Positions 8,056-18,349 of a stretch of DNA of 64,000 nt are shown piece after piece. The number at the start of each line of letters is the position of its first letter. Position 1 is the first letter of the stretch. The notes beneath the pieces are model-generated. The model saw only the letters and a program-made list of their open reading frames with translations, had not been told where the DNA came from and did not search any database. Source of the stretch: Bifidobacterium breve (GTDB taxonomy: Bacteria > Actinomycetota > Thermoleophilia > Solirubrobacterales > Solirubrobacteraceae); the NCBI GenBank assembly GCA_945878865.1, contig CAMCUD010000008.1, forward strand, positions 1-64,000, read 5' to 3'. The translations under genes were made by a program, and so were the position numbers.

Positions 8056-9504
8056 ATGGACGTCTCCTCCACCACCGCGGCGCCGTCCACGACGGGCGCC
8101 GACACGATCATCGTCGGGCTCGTCGACGGCGAGGCCCCCGCGTTCGACCTCGGGGGCGCGCTCGGCGACCTGCTGGCCTCCGGCGAGGCCAAGCCCGCCT
8201 TCAAGCGCCTCGCGCTCGCGCACGCCGACGGGACGCGCCTGCTCGCCGTCGGCCTGGGGTCGCGCGCCGAGCTCACCGCCGAGCGCGCACGGGTCGCCGC
8301 CGCGGTGGCGTTCAACCGCGCACGGGAGATCGGGGCGTCGTCGCTCTGCTGGGCGCTGCCGGCCGGCAGCGGTGAGGACCTCGCCGGCGCGGTCGTCGAG
8401 GGCTCGCTGCTCGCCGCCTACCGCTTCGACGCGTTCAAGCAGACGAGCGCCGACGACGCGAAGGGTCCCGGGGCGCTCGTCGTCGCGGCCGACACCGACG
8501 TGGACACGGCGGTCGCGCGCGCGGTGACGATCACCGAGGCGGTCAACCACGCGCGTGACCTCCAGAACACCCCCGCCAACGAGATGACGCCGACCGCGCT
8601 CGCCGAGGCGGCGCTCGAGCTGCGCGGCCTGCCCGGCGTCGAGGTGACCTTCGAGACCCGCGGTGGCATCGAGGCGCGCGGGATGGGCTGCTTCGCCGGC
8701 GTCGCGCGGGGCAGCGAGGAGGAACCGGCGCTCATCACCATCCGCTATGAGCCGGAGGGCGCGGCCGACGCGCCGGTCCTCGGCTTCGTCGGCAAGGCCG
8801 TGACGTTCGACAGCGGCGGCATCTCGCTCAAGCCCGCAGGCAAGATGCACGAGATGAAGTTCGACATGTCGGGCGGCGCTGCGGTGCTCGCCGCGACCAC
8901 GGCGATCATCCGTCTCGGCCTGCCCGTCCGCCTGATCAGCGTCATCGGCGCGACGGAGAACCTGCCGTCAGGCCGCTCGGTCAAGCCCGGCGACGTCCTG
9001 CGCGCAATGGATGGCACGACGGTCGAGGTCAACAACACCGACGCCGAAGGTCGCCTCGTGCTCGCCGACTGCCTGCTGCACGCGCGCAACGAGGGCGCCG
9101 AGCGCCTCGTCGACCTCGCCACGCTCACCGGCGCGATCGTCGTGGGGCTCGGTTCGACGTACGCCGGCCTGCTCGGCACCGACGACGCCTGGGTCGAGGA
9201 GGTCCGCGCCGCGGGCGAGCGCACCGGCGAGCTGGCCTGGCGGCTGCCGCTGCACCCCGAGTACGCGGAGATGGTCAAGGGCGACGTCGCCGACCTCGTC
9301 AACGCCACGGCGGAGCGCAAGGCGGGGTCGATCACGGCCGCGGAGTTCCTGCGGCGTTTCGCGGGTGACGTGCCGTGGGCGCACCTCGACATCGCCGGGA
9401 CCGCCTGGGGCCTCGGCCGGGCCTACGCCCGCAAGGGCGGGTCGGGCTTCGGCGTGCGCCTGCTCGTCGAGCTCGCGACGGCGCATGCGGCCGCCGCCTC
9501 ATAG
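8056..9504 (+). CDS. pepA: Leucyl aminopeptidase, family M17
   Basis: A 482-residue cytosolic metallopeptidase. The M17 signature NNTDAEGRLVLAD is intact, as is the first metal/active-site block GKAVTFDSGGISLKP with the catalytic Lys. It removes N-terminal residues, preferably Leu, and needs two divalent metals. The N-terminal third is the poorly conserved macrodomain-like region. The start is ATG 8056 (MDVSSTTAAPS). The gene is followed directly by the PHO-box region of the next gene. Confidence 0.95.
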   Translation: MDVSSTTAAPSTTGADTIIVGLVDGEAPAFDLGGALGDLLASGEAKPAFKRLALAHADGTRLLAVGLGSRAELTAERARVAAAVAFNRAREIGASSLCWALPAGSGEDLAGAVVEGSLLAAYRFDAFKQTSADDAKGPGALVVAADTDVDTAVARAVTITEAVNHARDLQNTPANEMTPTALAEAALELRGLPGVEVTFETRGGIEARGMGCFAGVARGSEEEPALITIRYEPEGAADAPVLGFVGKAVTFDSGGISLKPAGKMHEMKFDMSGGAAVLAATTAIIRLGLPVRLISVIGATENLPSGRSVKPGDVLRAMDGTTVEVNNTDAEGRLVLADCLLHARNEGAERLVDLATLTGAIVVGLGSTYAGLLGTDDAWVEEVRAAGERTGELAWRLPLHPEYAEMVKGDVADLVNATAERKAGSITAAEFLRRFAGDVPWAHLDIAGTAWGLGRAYARKGGSGFGVRLLVELATAHAAAAS

Positions 9505-9506
9505 AT

Positions 9507-9572
9507 GTTCACCGCTTGATCTCCATCTGGTGACGAACCGTTCACTCGCTGGTGACGAGAGGTTCACCGAGC
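9507..9572 (+). promoter_or_regulatory. Six-unit PHO box (PhoP-binding direct repeats)
   Basis: Six consecutive 11-nt units begin at 9507, 9518, 9529, 9540, 9551 and 9562: GTTCACCGCTT, GATCTCCATCT, GGTGACGAACC, GTTCACTCGCT, GGTGACGAGAG and GTTCACCGAGC. The units match the Streptomyces PhoP direct-repeat consensus (G-G/T-TCA followed by pyrimidines) in both sequence and 11-nt period. The array ends 58 bp before a PhoX-like phosphatase gene, which is the expected target under phosphate limitation. Confidence 0.8.
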
Positions 9573-9630
9573 ACGACGCAACGGAATCGAGGATGTCGGG
9601 GTCGTCCATCCCCGACGCAGAGGAGTCCTC

Positions 9631-11184
9631 TTGCGCAGCACGATCTTCCGCACCGTGGCCGCCCTGGCCGCGGTCGGCGCGGTCGCGGCGCCCAGCGCCA
9701 ACGCCGCCACGTTCACCGGTCCGAGCACGACCACGGCGCCGTACGTCCTGCCGTCCAACGCCAACGTCGACACGACCTCGCTCCTGACGGTCGGCGACTC
9801 CGTCCCGAAGGTCGGCGGCGGCAGCTACCGCATGGTCGGCATCCCGGATGGCCTCGGGGCCCTGCCGCTCATCGGCGGCAAGATGAAGTTCTTCATGAAC
9901 CACGAGCTGCCGAACAACCGCGGCATCGCCCGCCGCCACGGCAAGATCGGCTCGTTCGTCTCGTCCTGGTCGCTCGACAAGAGCACCAAGGCGGTCGAGA
10001 GCGGCGAGGATCTCATCACCTCGGTGAAGTACTGGGACTACGTCTCGCAGACCTACAAGACCACGCCGTCGGCCGGCGGTCCCAACCCGCGCGTCGCCGG
10101 TGACACGTTCCCGGCGCAGCCGGCGGAGTTCAACCGCTTCTGCTCGGCCTCGCTGACCGACGTCGGCGCCCTGTTCAACAAGGCGACCGGCAACGGCTAC
10201 AAGGGCCAGATCTACTTCGGCAACGAAGAGGGCGGCGACGAGTCGCGGCTCTTCGGCGTGACGGTCGACAACGGCAAGGCGCAGCAGCTCCAGCGCACGG
10301 GGCTCTTCTCCTGGGAGAACACGCTCCTGGCCCCGACCACGAACGATCGCACGGTGCTCCTCGGCAACGAGGACGGCGGCAACGGCCAGATCTGGCTGTA
10401 CAGCGGCACGAAGACGAACACGGGCAGCCCGTTCGACAAGGCCGGCCTCACCAACGGCACGAACTACGTCATCGACGCGGTCAACGCGGCGGTCACGAAC
10501 GACGCAGGGTTCCGTTCGACCTACGGCAAGAACAACCCCGCCCCCGTCACGCTGAACTCCGTCAACTGGGATCAGTCGGGCGCCAAGCAGAACGCCGACG
10601 CGCTGGCGAACGGCCTGACGCTCAACCGCATCGAGGACGGCGCCTTCGACCCGAGCAACCCGAACGACTACTACTTCATCACCACGTCGGGTGGCGCGAC
10701 CACGCCGAACCCGGCCGAGCCGTCGATCTCCCGCAACGGCGGCGGCCTGTGGAAGCTGTCGTTCAACGACGTCAACGACCCGTCCGCGGGCGCGACGCTC
10801 ACGCTCCTGCTCGACGGCTCGGAGGCCCCGTACCTCAGCGCCCCGGACAACATGGGCATCGACCGCGAGGGCAACCTCCTTATCCAGGAGGATCCGGGCA
10901 ACAGCGCGCACCTCGCGCGCATCGTCGCCTACAAGATCAGCAACGGCAAGCGCGGCGTCGTCGCCACGTTCGACCCGGCGAAGTTCACGCCGGCGCTGCC
11001 CGGGCTGCTGACGCAGGACGAGGAGTCCAGCGGCATCATCGACGTCTCGGCCCAGCTCGGCCGCGGCACGTTCCTGTTCGACGCGCAGGTGCACAGCGCC
11101 AACGCCGACCCGGAGCTCGTGGAGAACGGCCAGATCCTGACGCTGAAGGTCCGCGGCTGGAACGGCATCTACCAGTTCAACTAG
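9631..11184 (+). CDS. Secreted PhoX-like (DUF839) alkaline phosphatase
   Basis: A 517-residue exported protein with a signal peptide ending near PSANA|ATFT and a beta-propeller-like body rich in GNE/ED motifs (YFGNEEGGDESR, VLLGNEDGGNG, NRIEDGAFDP, PDNMGIDREGN). These acidic motifs resemble the Ca/Fe-binding and active-site regions of PhoX/DUF839 proteins, which hydrolyse phosphomonoesters. The start is TTG 9631 with AGGAG placed upstream. A multi-unit PHO box in front supports a phosphate-starvation role. The weaker alternative is a non-enzymatic DUF839 paralogue. Confidence 0.78.
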   Translation: MRSTIFRTVAALAAVGAVAAPSANAATFTGPSTTTAPYVLPSNANVDTTSLLTVGDSVPKVGGGSYRMVGIPDGLGALPLIGGKMKFFMNHELPNNRGIARRHGKIGSFVSSWSLDKSTKAVESGEDLITSVKYWDYVSQTYKTTPSAGGPNPRVAGDTFPAQPAEFNRFCSASLTDVGALFNKATGNGYKGQIYFGNEEGGDESRLFGVTVDNGKAQQLQRTGLFSWENTLLAPTTNDRTVLLGNEDGGNGQIWLYSGTKTNTGSPFDKAGLTNGTNYVIDAVNAAVTNDAGFRSTYGKNNPAPVTLNSVNWDQSGAKQNADALANGLTLNRIEDGAFDPSNPNDYYFITTSGGATTPNPAEPSISRNGGGLWKLSFNDVNDPSAGATLTLLLDGSEAPYLSAPDNMGIDREGNLLIQEDPGNSAHLARIVAYKISNGKRGVVATFDPAKFTPALPGLLTQDEESSGIIDVSAQLGRGTFLFDAQVHSANADPELVENGQILTLKVRGWNGIYQFN

Positions 11185-12892: not shown

Positions 12893-13627
12893 CTACGCGC
12901 AGTTCGGCCAGGACGACGGGCCCGCCGTCCGGTAGAGCGCCGCGGCGCGCCGATCCTGCTCGGACTCGGGCGCAGCCGCCGGATCGCCGGTGCCGCCGAC
13001 CGTCCGCCACGTCGCGCGGGAGAACTGGTACTTGCCGCGGTACGTGCCGTCGGCCGAGACGGCGCGCGGATCGCCGCCGGACTCGCACTGCGCGATGCGC
13101 TCCAGCGTCGCGCGCAGGTCGGCCGGGATCGACGCGCCGCTCGTGCGCTTGCGCTTGGCGGGCGCCTCGCCGGCGGTCGCACCGCCGCCGGACGGCGTGG
13201 TCGAGGCCTCCTTGGCGCGCAGGCCGAGCGACGAGAGCGTCGCGCTGTCCAGCCGGCCGGTGACCTTCAGGCCCTCGGCGCGCTGGTGGCGGCGGATCGC
13301 GCCGCGGGTGACCGGGCCGACGATGCCGTCGGCCGGCACACCGAGCGCGCGCTGCGCGGCCTTGACGGTCGCGGCGCTCGGGCCGGCGTCCAGAGACGCG
13401 TCAGGCGTGTCGTCACCGGCCGTGGTGGCCGCCAGCGCGGTCCCGCCGCCCAGGGCCAGGGCGCCGCACAGGACAAGCGTGCCGGCACGGCCGCGCAGGC
13501 GCCGGCGGGCGGCGCGGGCCGCGGCGGCGCGGCGGCCACGGGATGCACGCAGTGAGCGGCTGAACGCGAGCGCGTGATCGAGATCGTCACCGCGCGCGGG
13601 CGCGGTCAGGTCATCGGTATGGGGCAC
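12893..13627 (-). CDS. Rpf-like cell-wall hydrolase with peptidoglycan-binding domain
   Basis: A 244-residue protein with an N-terminal cytosolic segment, a membrane/signal segment (about 45-68), a PG_binding_1 domain (about 85-130, AAQRALGVPADGIVGPVTR) and a C-terminal transglycosylase/Rpf-like domain (about 170-244). The catalytic Glu sits in IAQCESGGDPRAV, followed by YRGKYQFSRATW. It likely cleaves peptidoglycan glycan strands during growth or resuscitation. The start is GTG 13627 with AAGGAG 9 bases upstream. A c-di-AMP riboswitch precedes it, and a paralogue with its own riboswitch follows upstream at 13838-14812. Confidence 0.9.
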   Translation of the reverse strand: MPHTDDLTAPARGDDLDHALAFSRSLRASRGRRAAAARAARRRLRGRAGTLVLCGALALGGGTALAATTAGDDTPDASLDAGPSAATVKAAQRALGVPADGIVGPVTRGAIRRHQRAEGLKVTGRLDSATLSSLGLRAKEASTTPSGGGATAGEAPAKRKRTSGASIPADLRATLERIAQCESGGDPRAVSADGTYRGKYQFSRATWRTVGGTGDPAAAPESEQDRRAAALYRTAGPSSWPNCA

Positions 13628-13837: not shown

Positions 13838-14812
13838 TCACATGCGCCCGCACACCGGCCACGACGACGGTCCGGTGCGCCGGTAGAGGATCGCCGCGCG
13901 ACGATCCTGCTCGGCCTCGGAGGCGGCTGCCGGGTCGCCCTTGCCGCCGACGCTGCGCCACGTCAAGCGCGTGAACTGGTACTTGCCGCGGTACCGGCCG
14001 TCCGGGGAGATCGCCCGCGGGTTGCCGCCCGACTCGCAGCGCGCGATGCGCTCCAGCCGCGCCTGCAGCTGCGCGCCGGCCGGCGCATCGTCGACCGGCG
14101 GAGTCGGCGACAGGCCGGCCTGCTCAGGGATCTCCGGACGTGAGGTGGGGCGCTTGGGCGGGACGGGGGACAGACCGGCGTCGTTGGGCAGCTGGCCGCC
14201 GACCACGGGCGGCGGGGCGCCCGCGAGCGCGCCGCCTGTGACGGGCGCAGCGGGACCCTCGCCGTCGTCGACCGGGGCGCCCGCCGGCACGGTGGTCGTC
14301 GCCGGCGTGGTCGTCGTCGCGGCCGGTGTCGTCGCCGTGGCGGTGGGCGTGGTGGCCGTCGGGGGTGCGGGGGTCGTCACGGCCGGCTCCGCGGCCTCCT
14401 CCGGCGCGACCGCGGCCTCTCCGGCCCGGATCGCCGATACCGCACCCGACGCCGTCGCCGTCCCGACGACTTCCAGCGCCTGCCGGGTCACGCCGAGCAC
14501 GACGAGCGTCTCGTCGTCCAGCTGCCCGGTCACGGGCAGCCCGCGGCCCTCCTGGAAGGCGCGGACCGCCGCCCGCGTGGCCGGACCGGCGATGCCGTCG
14601 GCGGGCACGCCCAGCCGCCGTTGCGCCGCGCGGATGAGGTCCTGCCCCGTGGGCCCGGCCGCCGTCGCCGTCGACGCGCGGTCGTCGCCGGCCAGCACGG
14701 CGGCCACCACCGGCCCGCACACGAGCGCGACGAGCGCGCAGAGCACGAAGGTCCGGACGGACACGATGCGACGGCTGGCTTGCTGCGGCGCGCGTGGCGC
14801 CCGGTCGGGCAC
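13838..14812 (-). CDS. Rpf-like cell-wall hydrolase with Thr/Pro-rich linker
   Basis: A 324-residue paralogue of the gene at 12893-13627: membrane segment (about 18-42), PG_binding_1 domain (about 55-105), a long Thr/Ala/Pro-rich linker (about 140-240, low complexity, probably wall-spanning) and a C-terminal Rpf-like domain with IARCESGGNPRAIS and YRGKYQFTRLTW. The catalytic Glu is retained. The start is GTG 14812 with GAGGAG upstream. Its own c-di-AMP riboswitch lies directly upstream, so riboswitch and gene were apparently duplicated as a unit and then diverged in linker length. Confidence 0.9.
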   Translation of the reverse strand: MPDRAPRAPQQASRRIVSVRTFVLCALVALVCGPVVAAVLAGDDRASTATAAGPTGQDLIRAAQRRLGVPADGIAGPATRAAVRAFQEGRGLPVTGQLDDETLVVLGVTRQALEVVGTATASGAVSAIRAGEAAVAPEEAAEPAVTTPAPPTATTPTATATTPAATTTTPATTTVPAGAPVDDGEGPAAPVTGGALAGAPPPVVGGQLPNDAGLSPVPPKRPTSRPEIPEQAGLSPTPPVDDAPAGAQLQARLERIARCESGGNPRAISPDGRYRGKYQFTRLTWRSVGGKGDPAAASEAEQDRRAAILYRRTGPSSWPVCGRM

Positions 14813-16227: not shown

Positions 16228-17582
16228 GGGACCAGCAGCGCCGCGGGTGAGGCGTCCGGTGCCAGATTCCGCACCGCGGGCGGCAGGGAGCCTACCGCCG
16301 CGAGCGCCTCGTCGAGTGCCTCGCGATGGCCGGCCGCCCGTTCGGCCGCGTAGGGCGCGGACAGGTTGCGGTGCGTCATGAACGCCCAGTCGGAGGACTG
16401 CAGGGCGAGCAACTCGCGGACGGCGCGGGCGTCTGCGCGCGCCCCCGCCCCGACCACGCGCAACTCTGCGTCGCGCGCTCCCCAGGCCAGGTCGGCGACC
16501 GACGGCGCCGTCCAGGTCGTCAGGTCGCGCGGGGTTCCCCAGGTCGTCACCGGCAGGTCGGGGGCCTGCACGGCCTCGCGCCGGTGCAGCGCGTCGTCGA
16601 GCCGGGAGATCGGGAGGCCCTGCGTGTCGGCCTCCGCCAGCACCGCTTCAAGCCACCAGGGACCTTCGTGCCACCAGTGGCCGAGGAGCTCGGTGTCGAT
16701 GGCGAAGACGCACAGGCCGCCGCCCGCGACCCGCTCGCGGACCTTCGCGACGAAATCCCGCGCGTCGGCCCGGGCGGCGTCGCGCGCGCGGTCCGGGTCG
16801 TACGGGGCGCCGTCGCAGGCGTGGGCGAGATGGTCGTGCGCGGTGTGGCGGAAGGTGTCGCGGTACGCCGCGCCGCCCGGGTAGCCGCCCTCGCTCCAGA
16901 CCAGCTCGATGGTCGGCCGGTCGATCGGCACGAGCAGCGGCCCGTCGGCCGAGCGCAGCGGGCGCAGCGGATCGATGCCGGTGTCCGTCAGGTCGACGCA
17001 GACGGCGTGGACGCCCGCCTCCTCGAGCAGGCCGTCGAGGGCGGGGTCGTGCGCGCACTCGGGGAGCCAGAAGCCGCCGTCCCACGCGCCGAAGCGGCGA
17101 CGGTGCGCGTCGATGCCCGTCCGCAGTTGCAGGCGCACGCCGGCGTCGGTGGCCAGCAGCGGCAGCACCGCGTGGGTGGCCGACGACGTCCAGGCGACGT
17201 GGGGCGCGAGCGCCCCGAGCAGGTCACCGCCGAGCTCCTCCATCCGGCGGCGCGCCGCTTCATAGGACTCCAGGGAGTGACGCAGCGCGGCAGCCTCGGC
17301 GGGCGACGCCGCGGCCTCGATGTCCGCGGCGTGGGTCGAGCGGCGCACGCCGGTGATGAACGCGTCGAAGCGCGCCCCGAGGTCGGCGACCTCGAGCTGG
17401 TCGGCGAGGACCGGCGTGAGGCTCAGCGTGAGGCGGTGCCCGTCGCGTTCAAGCACGTCGAGCAGCGGCACGTAGGACGTCGCGATCGCCTCCCACAGCC
17501 ACTCCTCGCCGAACGGCCAGGTGCCGAAGCCCTCGACGTAGGGCATGTGGGTGTGCAGCAGGATGCTGAGTTCGCCGTTCAA
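16224..17582 (-). CDS. GH57 alpha-glucan branching enzyme/glucanotransferase, Rv3031-like
   Basis: A 452-residue protein with the GH57 motifs in order: LLHTHMPYVEG (motif 1), GGFWLPECAHDP with the likely nucleophile Glu (near residue 172), DTELLGHWWHE with the likely acid/base Asp, and a C-terminal helical region including LSAPYAAERAAGH. Family members transfer alpha-1,4-glucan chains to make 1,6 branches. It shares 4-base overlaps with both neighbours, so the three genes form one transcript. Compared with thermophilic GH57 branching enzymes, the C-terminal domain looks short. Confidence 0.87.
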   Translation of the reverse strand: MNGELSILLHTHMPYVEGFGTWPFGEEWLWEAIATSYVPLLDVLERDGHRLTLSLTPVLADQLEVADLGARFDAFITGVRRSTHAADIEAAASPAEAAALRHSLESYEAARRRMEELGGDLLGALAPHVAWTSSATHAVLPLLATDAGVRLQLRTGIDAHRRRFGAWDGGFWLPECAHDPALDGLLEEAGVHAVCVDLTDTGIDPLRPLRSADGPLLVPIDRPTIELVWSEGGYPGGAAYRDTFRHTAHDHLAHACDGAPYDPDRARDAARADARDFVAKVRERVAGGGLCVFAIDTELLGHWWHEGPWWLEAVLAEADTQGLPISRLDDALHRREAVQAPDLPVTTWGTPRDLTTWTAPSVADLAWGARDAELRVVGAGARADARAVRELLALQSSDWAFMTHRNLSAPYAAERAAGHREALDEALAAVGSLPPAVRNLAPDASPAALLVP

Positions 17583-18349
17583 GGCCGCAGCACCGCGATG
17601 AGGTCGAGCGCCCCGTGCAGGTCGCCGGGAGCCCCCTCACGCAGCGTGAAGTCCCCGGCGTCGATCGCGGGGACGAACCAGTCGTAGAACGGCTTCGTGA
17701 TCCGCAGCTTGGGATGCAGCCAGTCCCAGCCGAGCTTGATCGCGAGGTCCTGCGCCTTGAGCTTGCGCGCGTGGAACAGGCCGTGCAGCTCGACCGACGA
17801 GAAGTGCTGCGCGCACAGCTCGGCGTACTCCTCGGGCTTGTACTCGTAGACGTGCCACGGGTTGTCCGAGCGCTCGCCGTCGGGCGCCAGCGTCAGGACG
17901 TTCGGCGTGGACACGTACGCGACGCCCCCGGGCTGCAGCTGCGACTTGAAGTGCTCGAGGATCGCGCCCGGGTCCTGGACGTGCTCGATCGTCTGCAGGA
18001 ACACGATCGCGTCGCACGGCTCGGCGTAGGCCTCCACGAGCGCGCGCTCGAAGCGGACGGTGTCGGTCGTGTACTTCGCCTTGGCGTGCGCGTGCGCCTC
18101 GGGGTTCGCGTCCACGCCGGTGACCGACGCGGCCGTCCGGCCGAGGACCTCGGAGCCGTAGCCCTCGCCGCACGCCATGTCGACGACCCGCAGCCCCTTC
18201 GTGCGCTCGGCGATCCACTCGTAGACCACGAGATGGCGCTGGAACCAGTAGTTCTCCTCGGGCACGTCGGGGAGCGTGCGCTCGCCCGTCAGCTCCAGCG
18301 GCGGCACGCCGTCGGGCTGGTCCTGCTGCACGTACGTCTGCGTCGTCAC
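17579..18349 (-). CDS. SAM-dependent methyltransferase, Rv3030-like
   Basis: About 256 residues, class I methyltransferase. After PLELTGERTLPDVPEENYWF comes the SAM motif VVDMACGEGYGSEVL, then GVDANPEA and VFLQTIEHVQDP. The ELTGERT...EENYWF opening is what I recall for the Rv3030 family, whose mycobacterial member is assigned to methylation of the glucose polysaccharide. It is first of the three-gene cluster. GTG 18349 is chosen because the conserved protein begins just after; the frame remains open further upstream into the divergent promoter. No strong ribosome site is seen. Confidence 0.82.
   Translation of the reverse strand: MTTQTYVQQDQPDGVPPLELTGERTLPDVPEENYWFQRHLVVYEWIAERTKGLRVVDMACGEGYGSEVLGRTAASVTGVDANPEAHAHAKAKYTTDTVRFERALVEAYAEPCDAIVFLQTIEHVQDPGAILEHFKSQLQPGGVAYVSTPNVLTLAPDGERSDNPWHVYEYKPEEYAELCAQHFSSVELHGLFHARKLKAQDLAIKLGWDWLHPKLRITKPFYDWFVPAIDAGDFTLREGAPGDLHGALDLIAVLRP

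What the first reader, a model, noticed from the sequence alone, without database searches (positions are those of the whole stretch)
9507..9572. Six perfectly phased 11-nt PHO-box units before a PhoX-like phosphatase
Units start at exactly 11-nt intervals over 66 bp; three are near-identical GTTCAC units and the others keep the G..(T/G)(A/T)C pattern. It matches Streptomyces PhoP operators, yet most described there have fewer adjacent repeats. It gives a regulon probe for this lineage and supports the DUF839 assignment.
Basis: partly seen in the sequence, partly recalled or inferred. Interest (0 to 1): 0.7.

Follow-up and report, generated by a model that had tools for sequence, protein, structure and literature searches.

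The report
PHO-box array before PhoX phosphatase
A bacterium of the actinobacterial line carries a row of six 11-letter repeats in front of a phosphatase gene, and the same kind of repeat sits in front of its phosphate-uptake genes, so it is very probably the on-switch that answers phosphate shortage; such switches are known from Streptomyces, but the protein that reads it in this lineage may be unusual.

Summary
Confirmed. Six 11-nt units lie at 9507-9572, 2 bp after pepA and 58 bp before a PhoX-family gene. A matrix trained only on arrays at phosphate genes elsewhere in this genome puts the array first of 127,870 six-unit positions in the window (39.1 bits; best non-overlapping site -6.1). 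A matrix from 29 relatives, own genome excluded, gives 35.6 bits, reached by 0 of 2000 shuffles. The product is predicted with the PhoX fold. Qualifications: units 3 and 5 (GGTGAC) fit the opposite strand better, and six-unit operators are on record (S. coelicolor pitH2). So: a new member of a known kind. The lead worth following is the reader protein: the pst locus encodes a receiver-less PhoB-type protein (30 of 30 loci examined), whose gene mostly carries the pstS operator at its 3' end, and a response regulator that in 9 of 11 copies lacks one receiver acidic residue. Binding is untested.

The parts
9507..9572 (+). six-unit 11-nt PHO-box-like operator
   Evidence: rank 1 in the window at six units with two matrices that did not contain it
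9507..9517 (+). unit 1 GTTCACCGCTT (12.5 bits, relatives' matrix)
9518..9528 (+). unit 2 GATCTCCATCT (weak, 1.2 bits with the relatives' matrix, 5.9 with the own-genome one)
9529..9539 (+). unit 3 GGTGACGAACC (3.9 bits in phase; overlapped by a better minus-strand unit 9535-9525, 8.4 bits)
9540..9550 (+). unit 4 GTTCACTCGCT (6.1 bits)
9551..9561 (+). unit 5 GGTGACGAGAG (3.0 bits in phase; overlapped by a better minus-strand unit 9557-9547, 6.1 bits)
9562..9572 (+). unit 6 GTTCACCGAGC (8.9 bits)
9589..9594 (+). GAGGAT, possible -10 element 16 bp after the array (picked by eye, not tested)
   Evidence: the likeness to actinobacterial -10 hexamers is recalled
9595..9616 (+). 7-bp perfect inverted repeat GTCGGGG-8-CCCCGAC in the presumed leader
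   Evidence: 51-nt stretch folds at -22.2 kcal/mol, z -2.5, 2 of 200 shuffles as good
9620..9625 (+). GAGGAG, likely ribosome-binding site, 5 nt before the TTG start
9631..11184 (+). PhoX-family, probably secreted, phosphatase gene (517 aa, TTG start)
   Evidence: PF05787 37.4 bits, cut-off 24; predicted fold best matches P. fluorescens PhoX; secretion inferred from the N-terminal letters
8056..9504 (+). upstream gene: M17 leucyl aminopeptidase (pepA-like); the array begins 2 bp after its stop

Best explanation
The array is the operator of a phosphate-starvation (Pho) regulon. A PhoB/PhoP-type winged-helix protein binds the 11-nt units head to tail, one protomer per unit and about one DNA turn apart: first the strong units (1, 4, 6), then cooperatively the weak ones. 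It then helps RNA polymerase start transcription of the secreted PhoX-like phosphatase when phosphate runs short. Shown here: the array, its likeness to arrays at pst and other phosphate genes of the genome, like arrays before PhoX homologues and pst genes of relatives, the predicted PhoX fold. Inferred: that it is bound, by which protein, that the effect is activation, the order of binding and the -10 element.
For: Own genome: arrays before the receiver-less regulator gene ahead of pstS, before pstS, two before the second pst operon, and a six-unit one before a PstS-type gene on C25. Ranking of the window array with a matrix that did not contain it: first. Pattern TTCAC-N6-TTCAC-N6-TTCAC with up to 3 mismatches: 39 matches in the genome against 2 for the reversed pattern. 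By my merging these are 30 sites; I looked at the surroundings of 20. Ten of the 20 face, in the right orientation, the pst regulator gene, pstS, the second pst operon (2 sites), the C25 PstS-type gene, this phoX, PhoA (PF00245), a phytase-like gene (PF13449), an LTD plus Exo_endo_phos gene, and a secreted FN3-like protein with only a weak purple-acid-phosphatase N-domain match. PhoX homologues of Actinomycetota: 3-unit score at shuffle p <= 0.01 in 9 of 15 upstream regions, the window included, against 5 of 40 non-actinobacterial ones. Relatives' pst loci: array before the regulator gene at p <= 0.005 in 28 of 30 loci, own included, against 1 of 120 random pieces.
Against: No binding or expression data. 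Of the five PstS-type (PF12849) matches two have no array of their own: C1, and one inside the pst operon, near which none of the eight best sites of the stretch lies. The second PhoX gene, on C6, has none. Three of 15 PhoX upstream regions show nothing (L131, L043, L101) and L046 is marginal. The control set is not empty (5 of 40; 29 further non-actinobacterial loci were not tested). Half of the 20 pattern sites examined do not face an evident phosphate gene, and 10 of 30 were not examined. The training arrays were picked with a matrix modelled on the recalled Streptomyces consensus, so likeness to that consensus is partly built in; the relatives' arrays were in turn located with the first matrix.
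Confidence: 0.88

Rival explanations
1. The array is read by another OmpR-type regulator with a TCAC direct-repeat site (like M. tuberculosis PhoP, MtrA or GlnR), not by a phosphate regulator.
For: M. tuberculosis PhoP is reported to bind TCACAGC-n4-TCACAGC, also an 11-nt period (PMC9019756, passages). The genome has 20 Trans_reg_C matches, 13 of them with a histidine-kinase motif within about 1.5 kb; one such regulator, on C6, scores nearest to YycF, RpaB, MtrA and PhoB but below their cut-offs. The likeness of MtrA and GlnR sites is recalled.
Against: The targets are phosphate genes, in this genome and in relatives.
Confidence: 0.1
2. The element is a set of inverted sites: GTGAC...GTTCAC dyads read by a dimer with two-fold symmetry, repeated at 22 nt, not six direct units.
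For: Units 3 and 5 score better on the minus strand (8.4 and 6.1 against 3.9 and 3.0 bits); a 22-nt repeat CTGGTGACGA is visible.
Against: The best three-unit minus-strand chain over the array scores 9.2 against 18.0 on the plus strand; homologues such as L134 and L132 have direct units without GGTGAC.
Confidence: 0.15
3. Chance likeness in a GC-rich genome.
For: Single units of 8 bits or more occur 80 times on the two strands of the window, and 2-unit scores as good arise in 15 of 2000 shuffles.
Against: Three or more units in phase: 0 of 2000 shuffles; rank 1 with both matrices at four and six units.
Confidence: 0.01

Closest known systems
Streptomyces PhoP operators (PHO boxes of 11-nt DRus, core GTTCACC)
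   Same: 11-nt head-to-tail units, GTTCACC-like core, strong core plus weak ancillary units, phosphate genes as targets; a six-unit 64-nt operator exists at pitH2 (PMC7866108, passages)
   Different: In the pst loci of relatives the first base is wider (G/C/T-TTCAC-A/G/C), a fourth unit is typically GGTAAC, and the pstS operator mostly lies at or in the 3' coding end of a regulator gene; the binding protein is not known
PhoB-DNA complex of E. coli (tandem binding to 11-nt units)
   Same: unit length and head-to-tail layout (PMC4415409, passages)
   Different: E. coli core CTGTCAT against TTCAC; E. coli boxes usually two units (recalled)
PhoX alkaline phosphatase of P. fluorescens (3zwu, 4a9v)
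   Same: best structural match of the predicted fold, E 7.9e-16, TM 0.63 by query length
   Different: 12% identity; Pfam match covers only part of the model; sequence search with the single protein finds nothing in the PDB and the profile finds PhoX only at E 0.012

Membership tests
PHO box / Pho-regulon operator | direct units of 11 nt with a TTCAC-type core | tested here: met
   unit 2 is weak, units 3 and 5 fit the other strand better
PHO box / Pho-regulon operator | same motif before pst and other phosphate genes of the genome | tested here: met
   exceptions C1 PstS-type and C6 PhoX
PHO box / Pho-regulon operator | like arrays at corresponding genes of relatives | tested here: met
   9 of 15 PhoX upstream regions at p <= 0.01; 28 of 30 regulator-gene upstream regions at p <= 0.005
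PHO box / Pho-regulon operator | bound by the phosphate response regulator | not testable with these tools
   needs EMSA or footprint
PHO box / Pho-regulon operator | phosphate-dependent transcription of the gene behind it | not testable with these tools
   needs expression data
PhoX alkaline phosphatase family (PF05787) | profile match over the curated cut-off | tested here: met
   37.4 bits, cut-off 24, residues 217-432
PhoX alkaline phosphatase family (PF05787) | PhoX fold | tested here: met
   predicted model, pLDDT 91.4; PhoX entries first, best other match E 3e-7 against 7.9e-16
PhoX alkaline phosphatase family (PF05787) | metal ligands of the Fe/Ca site | tested here: inconclusive
   C171, E199, E200, R333, E335, D406, E420, E465 are among the residues invariant in 25 homologues and the profile sets RxE against RPE of PhoX; the mapping to named ligands is recalled and was not superposed
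Streptomyces-type PhoP as the reader protein | PhoP orthologue with full receiver next to a PhoR kinase in the pst region | tested here: not met
   no kinase motif in the 20-kb pst stretch L122 (regex only); the pst-locus regulator has VIDADSG in place of the acidic pair; an ordinary regulator-kinase pair lies elsewhere, on C6, role unknown. A phoR-phoP pair need not lie beside pst, so this speaks about the locus, not about the whole genome

The most novel reading that the evidence does not exclude
In this order (taken to be Solirubrobacterales) the Pho regulon, this array included, is read not by an ordinary PhoR-PhoP pair but by a pst-locus set: receiver-less PhoB-type winged-helix proteins, plus a response regulator whose receiver has usually lost one acidic residue of the metal pocket, so that the signal is passed without ordinary phosphorylation (by protein amount, autoregulation, PhoU or pst contacts). 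The receiver-less gene carries the pstS operator at its own 3' coding end.
Probability: 0.3. Interest if true: 0.68.

Novelty: new member of a known kind. Interest (0 to 1): 0.43.

Why it matters
It gives a working regulon probe for a little-studied lineage of Actinomycetota: the matrix picks out phosphate transporters and phosphatases from raw sequence. It also points to a question that can be tested directly: how a phosphate regulon is switched where the likely reader proteins lack a normal receiver.

Tried and rejected
Pattern GTTCACY-N5-GTTCAC with 2 mismatches in the own genome gave 437 matches against 38 for the reversed pattern, too loose to use. Tandem Repeats Finder did not list the array. 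Searching the single PhoX-like protein against the PDB by sequence gave nothing; NCBIfam gave no family for it. Judging PhoX upstream regions by eye was replaced by the shuffle test. Rows dropped before that count: L057 (same upstream sequence as L134), L129 and L130 (5' end missing), L118 and L121 (actinomycetotal, about 30% identity, not tested). Of 69 non-actinobacterial loci, 40 served as control. In one search the start codon chosen for L168 was wrong, so its upstream test is a miss of the method, counted as a miss. The short length of the regulator genes was partly built in by my choice of starts; I therefore tested the full open frames: 21 of 30 have under 110 open residues before the winged helix, and the 9 longer ones show Trans_reg_C and no receiver in Pfam at E <= 0.1. 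A first crude motif check found PstS behind the regulator gene in 13 of 30 loci; listing the next open frame in the other 17 and Pfam on ten of these showed a PstS-type protein in seven and PhoU in three; the remaining seven show a lipoprotein-like N-terminus and PstS size and were not scanned. Of the 30 merged pattern sites, 10 were not examined, and eight of the 20 examined were judged from N-terminal letters only. A chance origin and a purely inverted-repeat reading were considered and ranked low. My finding nothing printed on Pho regulation in this lineage rests on four searches seen as listings: Solirubrobacter with Pho regulon (2 papers), Thermoleophilia with PhoP (3 papers), two of Solirubrobacter/PhoX/phosphate starvation (106 papers, 10 listed), four of pstS/response regulator/lacks receiver domain/winged helix/Actinobacteria/PHO box (18 papers, 15 listed); subscription journals are mostly not held. 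The Sola-Landa 2008 paper on DRu classes is known here only through citing papers.

Full report
What is there. The stretch 9507-9572 reads GTTCACCGCTT GATCTCCATCT GGTGACGAACC GTTCACTCGCT GGTGACGAGAG GTTCACCGAGC. It begins 2 bp after the stop of an M17 leucyl aminopeptidase gene (8056-9504) and ends 58 bp before the TTG start of a 517-aa gene (9631-11184) with GAGGAG 5 nt before the start. G1, T3 and C6 are fixed in all six units. The window lies in contig C8 of a 4.96-Mb genome in 79 contigs, 96% complete. Among the hits two MAGs named Solirubrobacteraceae (L047, L057) carry close homologues of the gene, and L047 has the same pepA-phoX gene order, so I take the genome for that family; no call names it.

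Is it more than chance? I scored it with two 11-column matrices that did not contain it. The first was built from 22 units of five arrays at phosphate genes elsewhere in the same genome; those arrays had been picked with a degenerate matrix modelled on the recalled Streptomyces consensus. It puts 9507 first of 127,870 six-unit positions (39.1 bits; the best position not overlapping the array is -6.1) and also first at two, three and four units; as a single unit 9507 ranks sixth. The second was built from 204 units of 29 relatives without the own genome, located with the first matrix: 35.6 bits and first place at six units, first also at three and four; at two units another site (48612, minus strand) scores higher. 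In 2000 dinucleotide shuffles of the intergenic stretch none reached the observed 3-, 4- or 6-unit score; 15 reached the 2-unit score. Of periods 8 to 14 only 11 gave a positive 3-unit sum.

A correction to the observation. Units 3 and 5 (GGTGAC) are weak in phase (3.9 and 3.0 bits) and fit the minus strand better, shifted to 9535-9525 and 9557-9547 (8.4 and 6.1 bits). The best three-unit chain of the array on the plus strand is still twice as strong as that on the minus strand (18.0 against 9.2). I therefore keep the direct-repeat reading but would not insist on six functional units; weak and even negative units occur in Streptomyces operators (S. filipinensis phoRP, units of 3.3, 10.6, -2.8 and 6.3 bits; PMC6283541, passages).

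The same operator at other genes of the genome. In the pst locus (C2, fetched as L122) arrays lie before pstS, before the small regulator gene ahead of pstS, and twice before a second pst operon on the other strand; a six-unit array lies before a PstS-type gene on C25. A search of the genome for three TTCAC words 11 nt apart with up to 3 mismatches gave 39 matches against 2 for the reversed pattern. Merged by hand these are 30 sites, and I looked at the surroundings of 20. Ten of the 20 face, in the right orientation, the pst regulator gene, pstS, the second pst operon (two sites), the C25 gene, this phoX, a PhoA-type alkaline phosphatase (PF00245, 281 bits), a phytase-like protein (PF13449, 183.8 bits), a lamin-tail/Exo_endo_phos protein, and a secreted FN3-like protein with a weak purple-acid-phosphatase N-domain match. 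One faces a secreted protein without Pfam match (there the array falls inside the longest open frame), one lies reversed before the pst-locus response regulator, and eight face nothing evidently related, judged from N-terminal letters only. Against: the PstS-type gene on C1 and the second PhoX gene on C6 have no array in 300 bp, and the third PstS-type gene of the pst region lies inside the operon without a site among the eight best of the stretch.

Conservation before PhoX. Of 101 genomes searched (own included) 8 have a PhoX homologue at E <= 1e-30, and the two others of the same genus have none, so the gene is patchy. In 15 actinomycetotal upstream regions (window included) the 3-unit score passes shuffle p <= 0.01 in 9; L128 and L071 pass at two units (p 0.003); L046 is marginal; L131, L043 and L101 show nothing. 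L134 has four direct units, and L047 has two good units between pepA and phoX. In 40 non-actinobacterial homologues the same test passes in 5, more than the nominal 1%, perhaps because other PHO boxes resemble this one.

The pst locus of relatives. A search with the small regulator found a match in 61 of 61 genomes, full regulators included; I worked on the 30 best-scoring loci, one a genome (29 relatives of two families, and own). In all 30 the gene lacks a receiver: 21 have under 110 open residues before the winged helix, and the open frames of the other 9 show Trans_reg_C and no receiver. An array lies upstream of the gene at p <= 0.005 in 28 of 30, and a second at its 3' end or just behind at p <= 0.005 in 24 of 30 (p <= 0.01 in 26); random 220-bp pieces of the same loci pass in 1 of 120. 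The four loci without a 3'-end array at p <= 0.01 are telling: in L166 pstS starts farther off and a 24.8-bit four-unit array stands right before it; in L176, L182 and L183 the next gene is PhoU, not PstS. The operator goes with pstS. In many loci it lies inside the last codons of the regulator gene, which would explain the shared C-terminal residues SHxFHxxATxR. The consensus is (G/C/T)TTCAC(A/G/C) in units 1 to 3, unit 3 before pstS being ggCcAC, and GGTAAC in unit 4.

Which protein reads it? Not established. The pst locus holds two receiver-less winged-helix genes (L122:10713-11075 and about 9690-9940) and a full response regulator (16814-17683) with the helix RSVDVFVRKLR. In 9 of 11 such full regulators the second residue of the receiver acidic pair is A, R, S or T; L223 and L225 keep it; two partial ones in L182 and L183 also have R. 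The role of that residue as metal ligand is recalled. A class-level relative (L227) has an ordinary receiver and a histidine-kinase motif nearby on the other strand, so the family may have begun as a normal two-component regulator; that is inference. No kinase motif was found by regex in the 20-kb pst stretch, but kinases elsewhere could serve, and an ordinary regulator-kinase pair on C6 remains a candidate. A profile of the receiver-less proteins matched 22 of 296 genomes of the phylum at 1e-25 (at most 15 candidates scored a genome), all 22 in the own class, and many of these matches lie in frames long enough for full regulators.

The gene behind the array. PF05787 matches at 37.4 bits over residues 217-432. 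A model from 25 homologues has mean pLDDT 91.4, and Foldseek puts P. fluorescens PhoX first (E 7.9e-16, TM 0.63 by query length), the best other match at 3e-7. Cys171, the RxE pair 333/335 and several acids are invariant in the 25. I take it as a PhoX-family enzyme; activity is untested.

Comparison with what is known. 11-nt DRus with GTTCACC core are the Streptomyces PHO box (PMC4415409, PMC7866108, PMC6283541, PMC6988585: passages seen; also passages of PMC2605767). Six units over 64 nt are on record for pitH2 (PMC7866108). The assignment to phosphate rests on the genes behind the arrays.

Verdict. The finding is real and its reading is right in the main. As an operator it is a new member of a known kind, of modest interest. 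What raises it is the regulator-pstS arrangement it led to, which is a lead and not a demonstrated mechanism.

Noticed in passing
L122:10713-11075 (G000:C2:116713-117075): Receiver-less PhoB-type winged-helix gene directly before pstS, itself preceded by an array; the pstS operator lies in its last codons. Receiver-less in all of the 30 best-scoring loci taken from 61 genomes.
   Followed up: partly
L122:about 9690-9940 (G000:C2:115634-115945): A second winged-helix domain of the same kind, apparently without receiver, between an unassigned gene and a DUF47/PhoU_div gene.
   Followed up: no
L122:16814-17683 (G000:C2): Response regulator with VIDADSG in place of the receiver acidic pair; 9 of 11 copies compared, own included, lack the second acidic residue.
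   Followed up: partly
L176, L182 and L183, downstream of the receiver-less gene: Here the next gene is PhoU (Pfam) and not pstS, in L182 and L183 followed by the response regulator, and the 3'-end array is weak or missing.
   Followed up: partly
window 9595-9616: Perfect 7-bp hairpin just before the ribosome-binding site of phoX; possible leader element.
   Followed up: no
L213:2751-3704 (G000:C41): Secreted-looking protein without Pfam match behind (start uncertain) a good array (25.4 bits at three units); a candidate new phosphate-scavenging protein.
   Followed up: no
window 12893-13627 and 13838-14812, minus strand: Two neighbouring paralogous open frames sharing a C-terminal RIA(Q/R)CESGG(D/N)PRA stretch, resembling secreted cell-wall lytic proteins (likeness recalled).
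   Followed up: no
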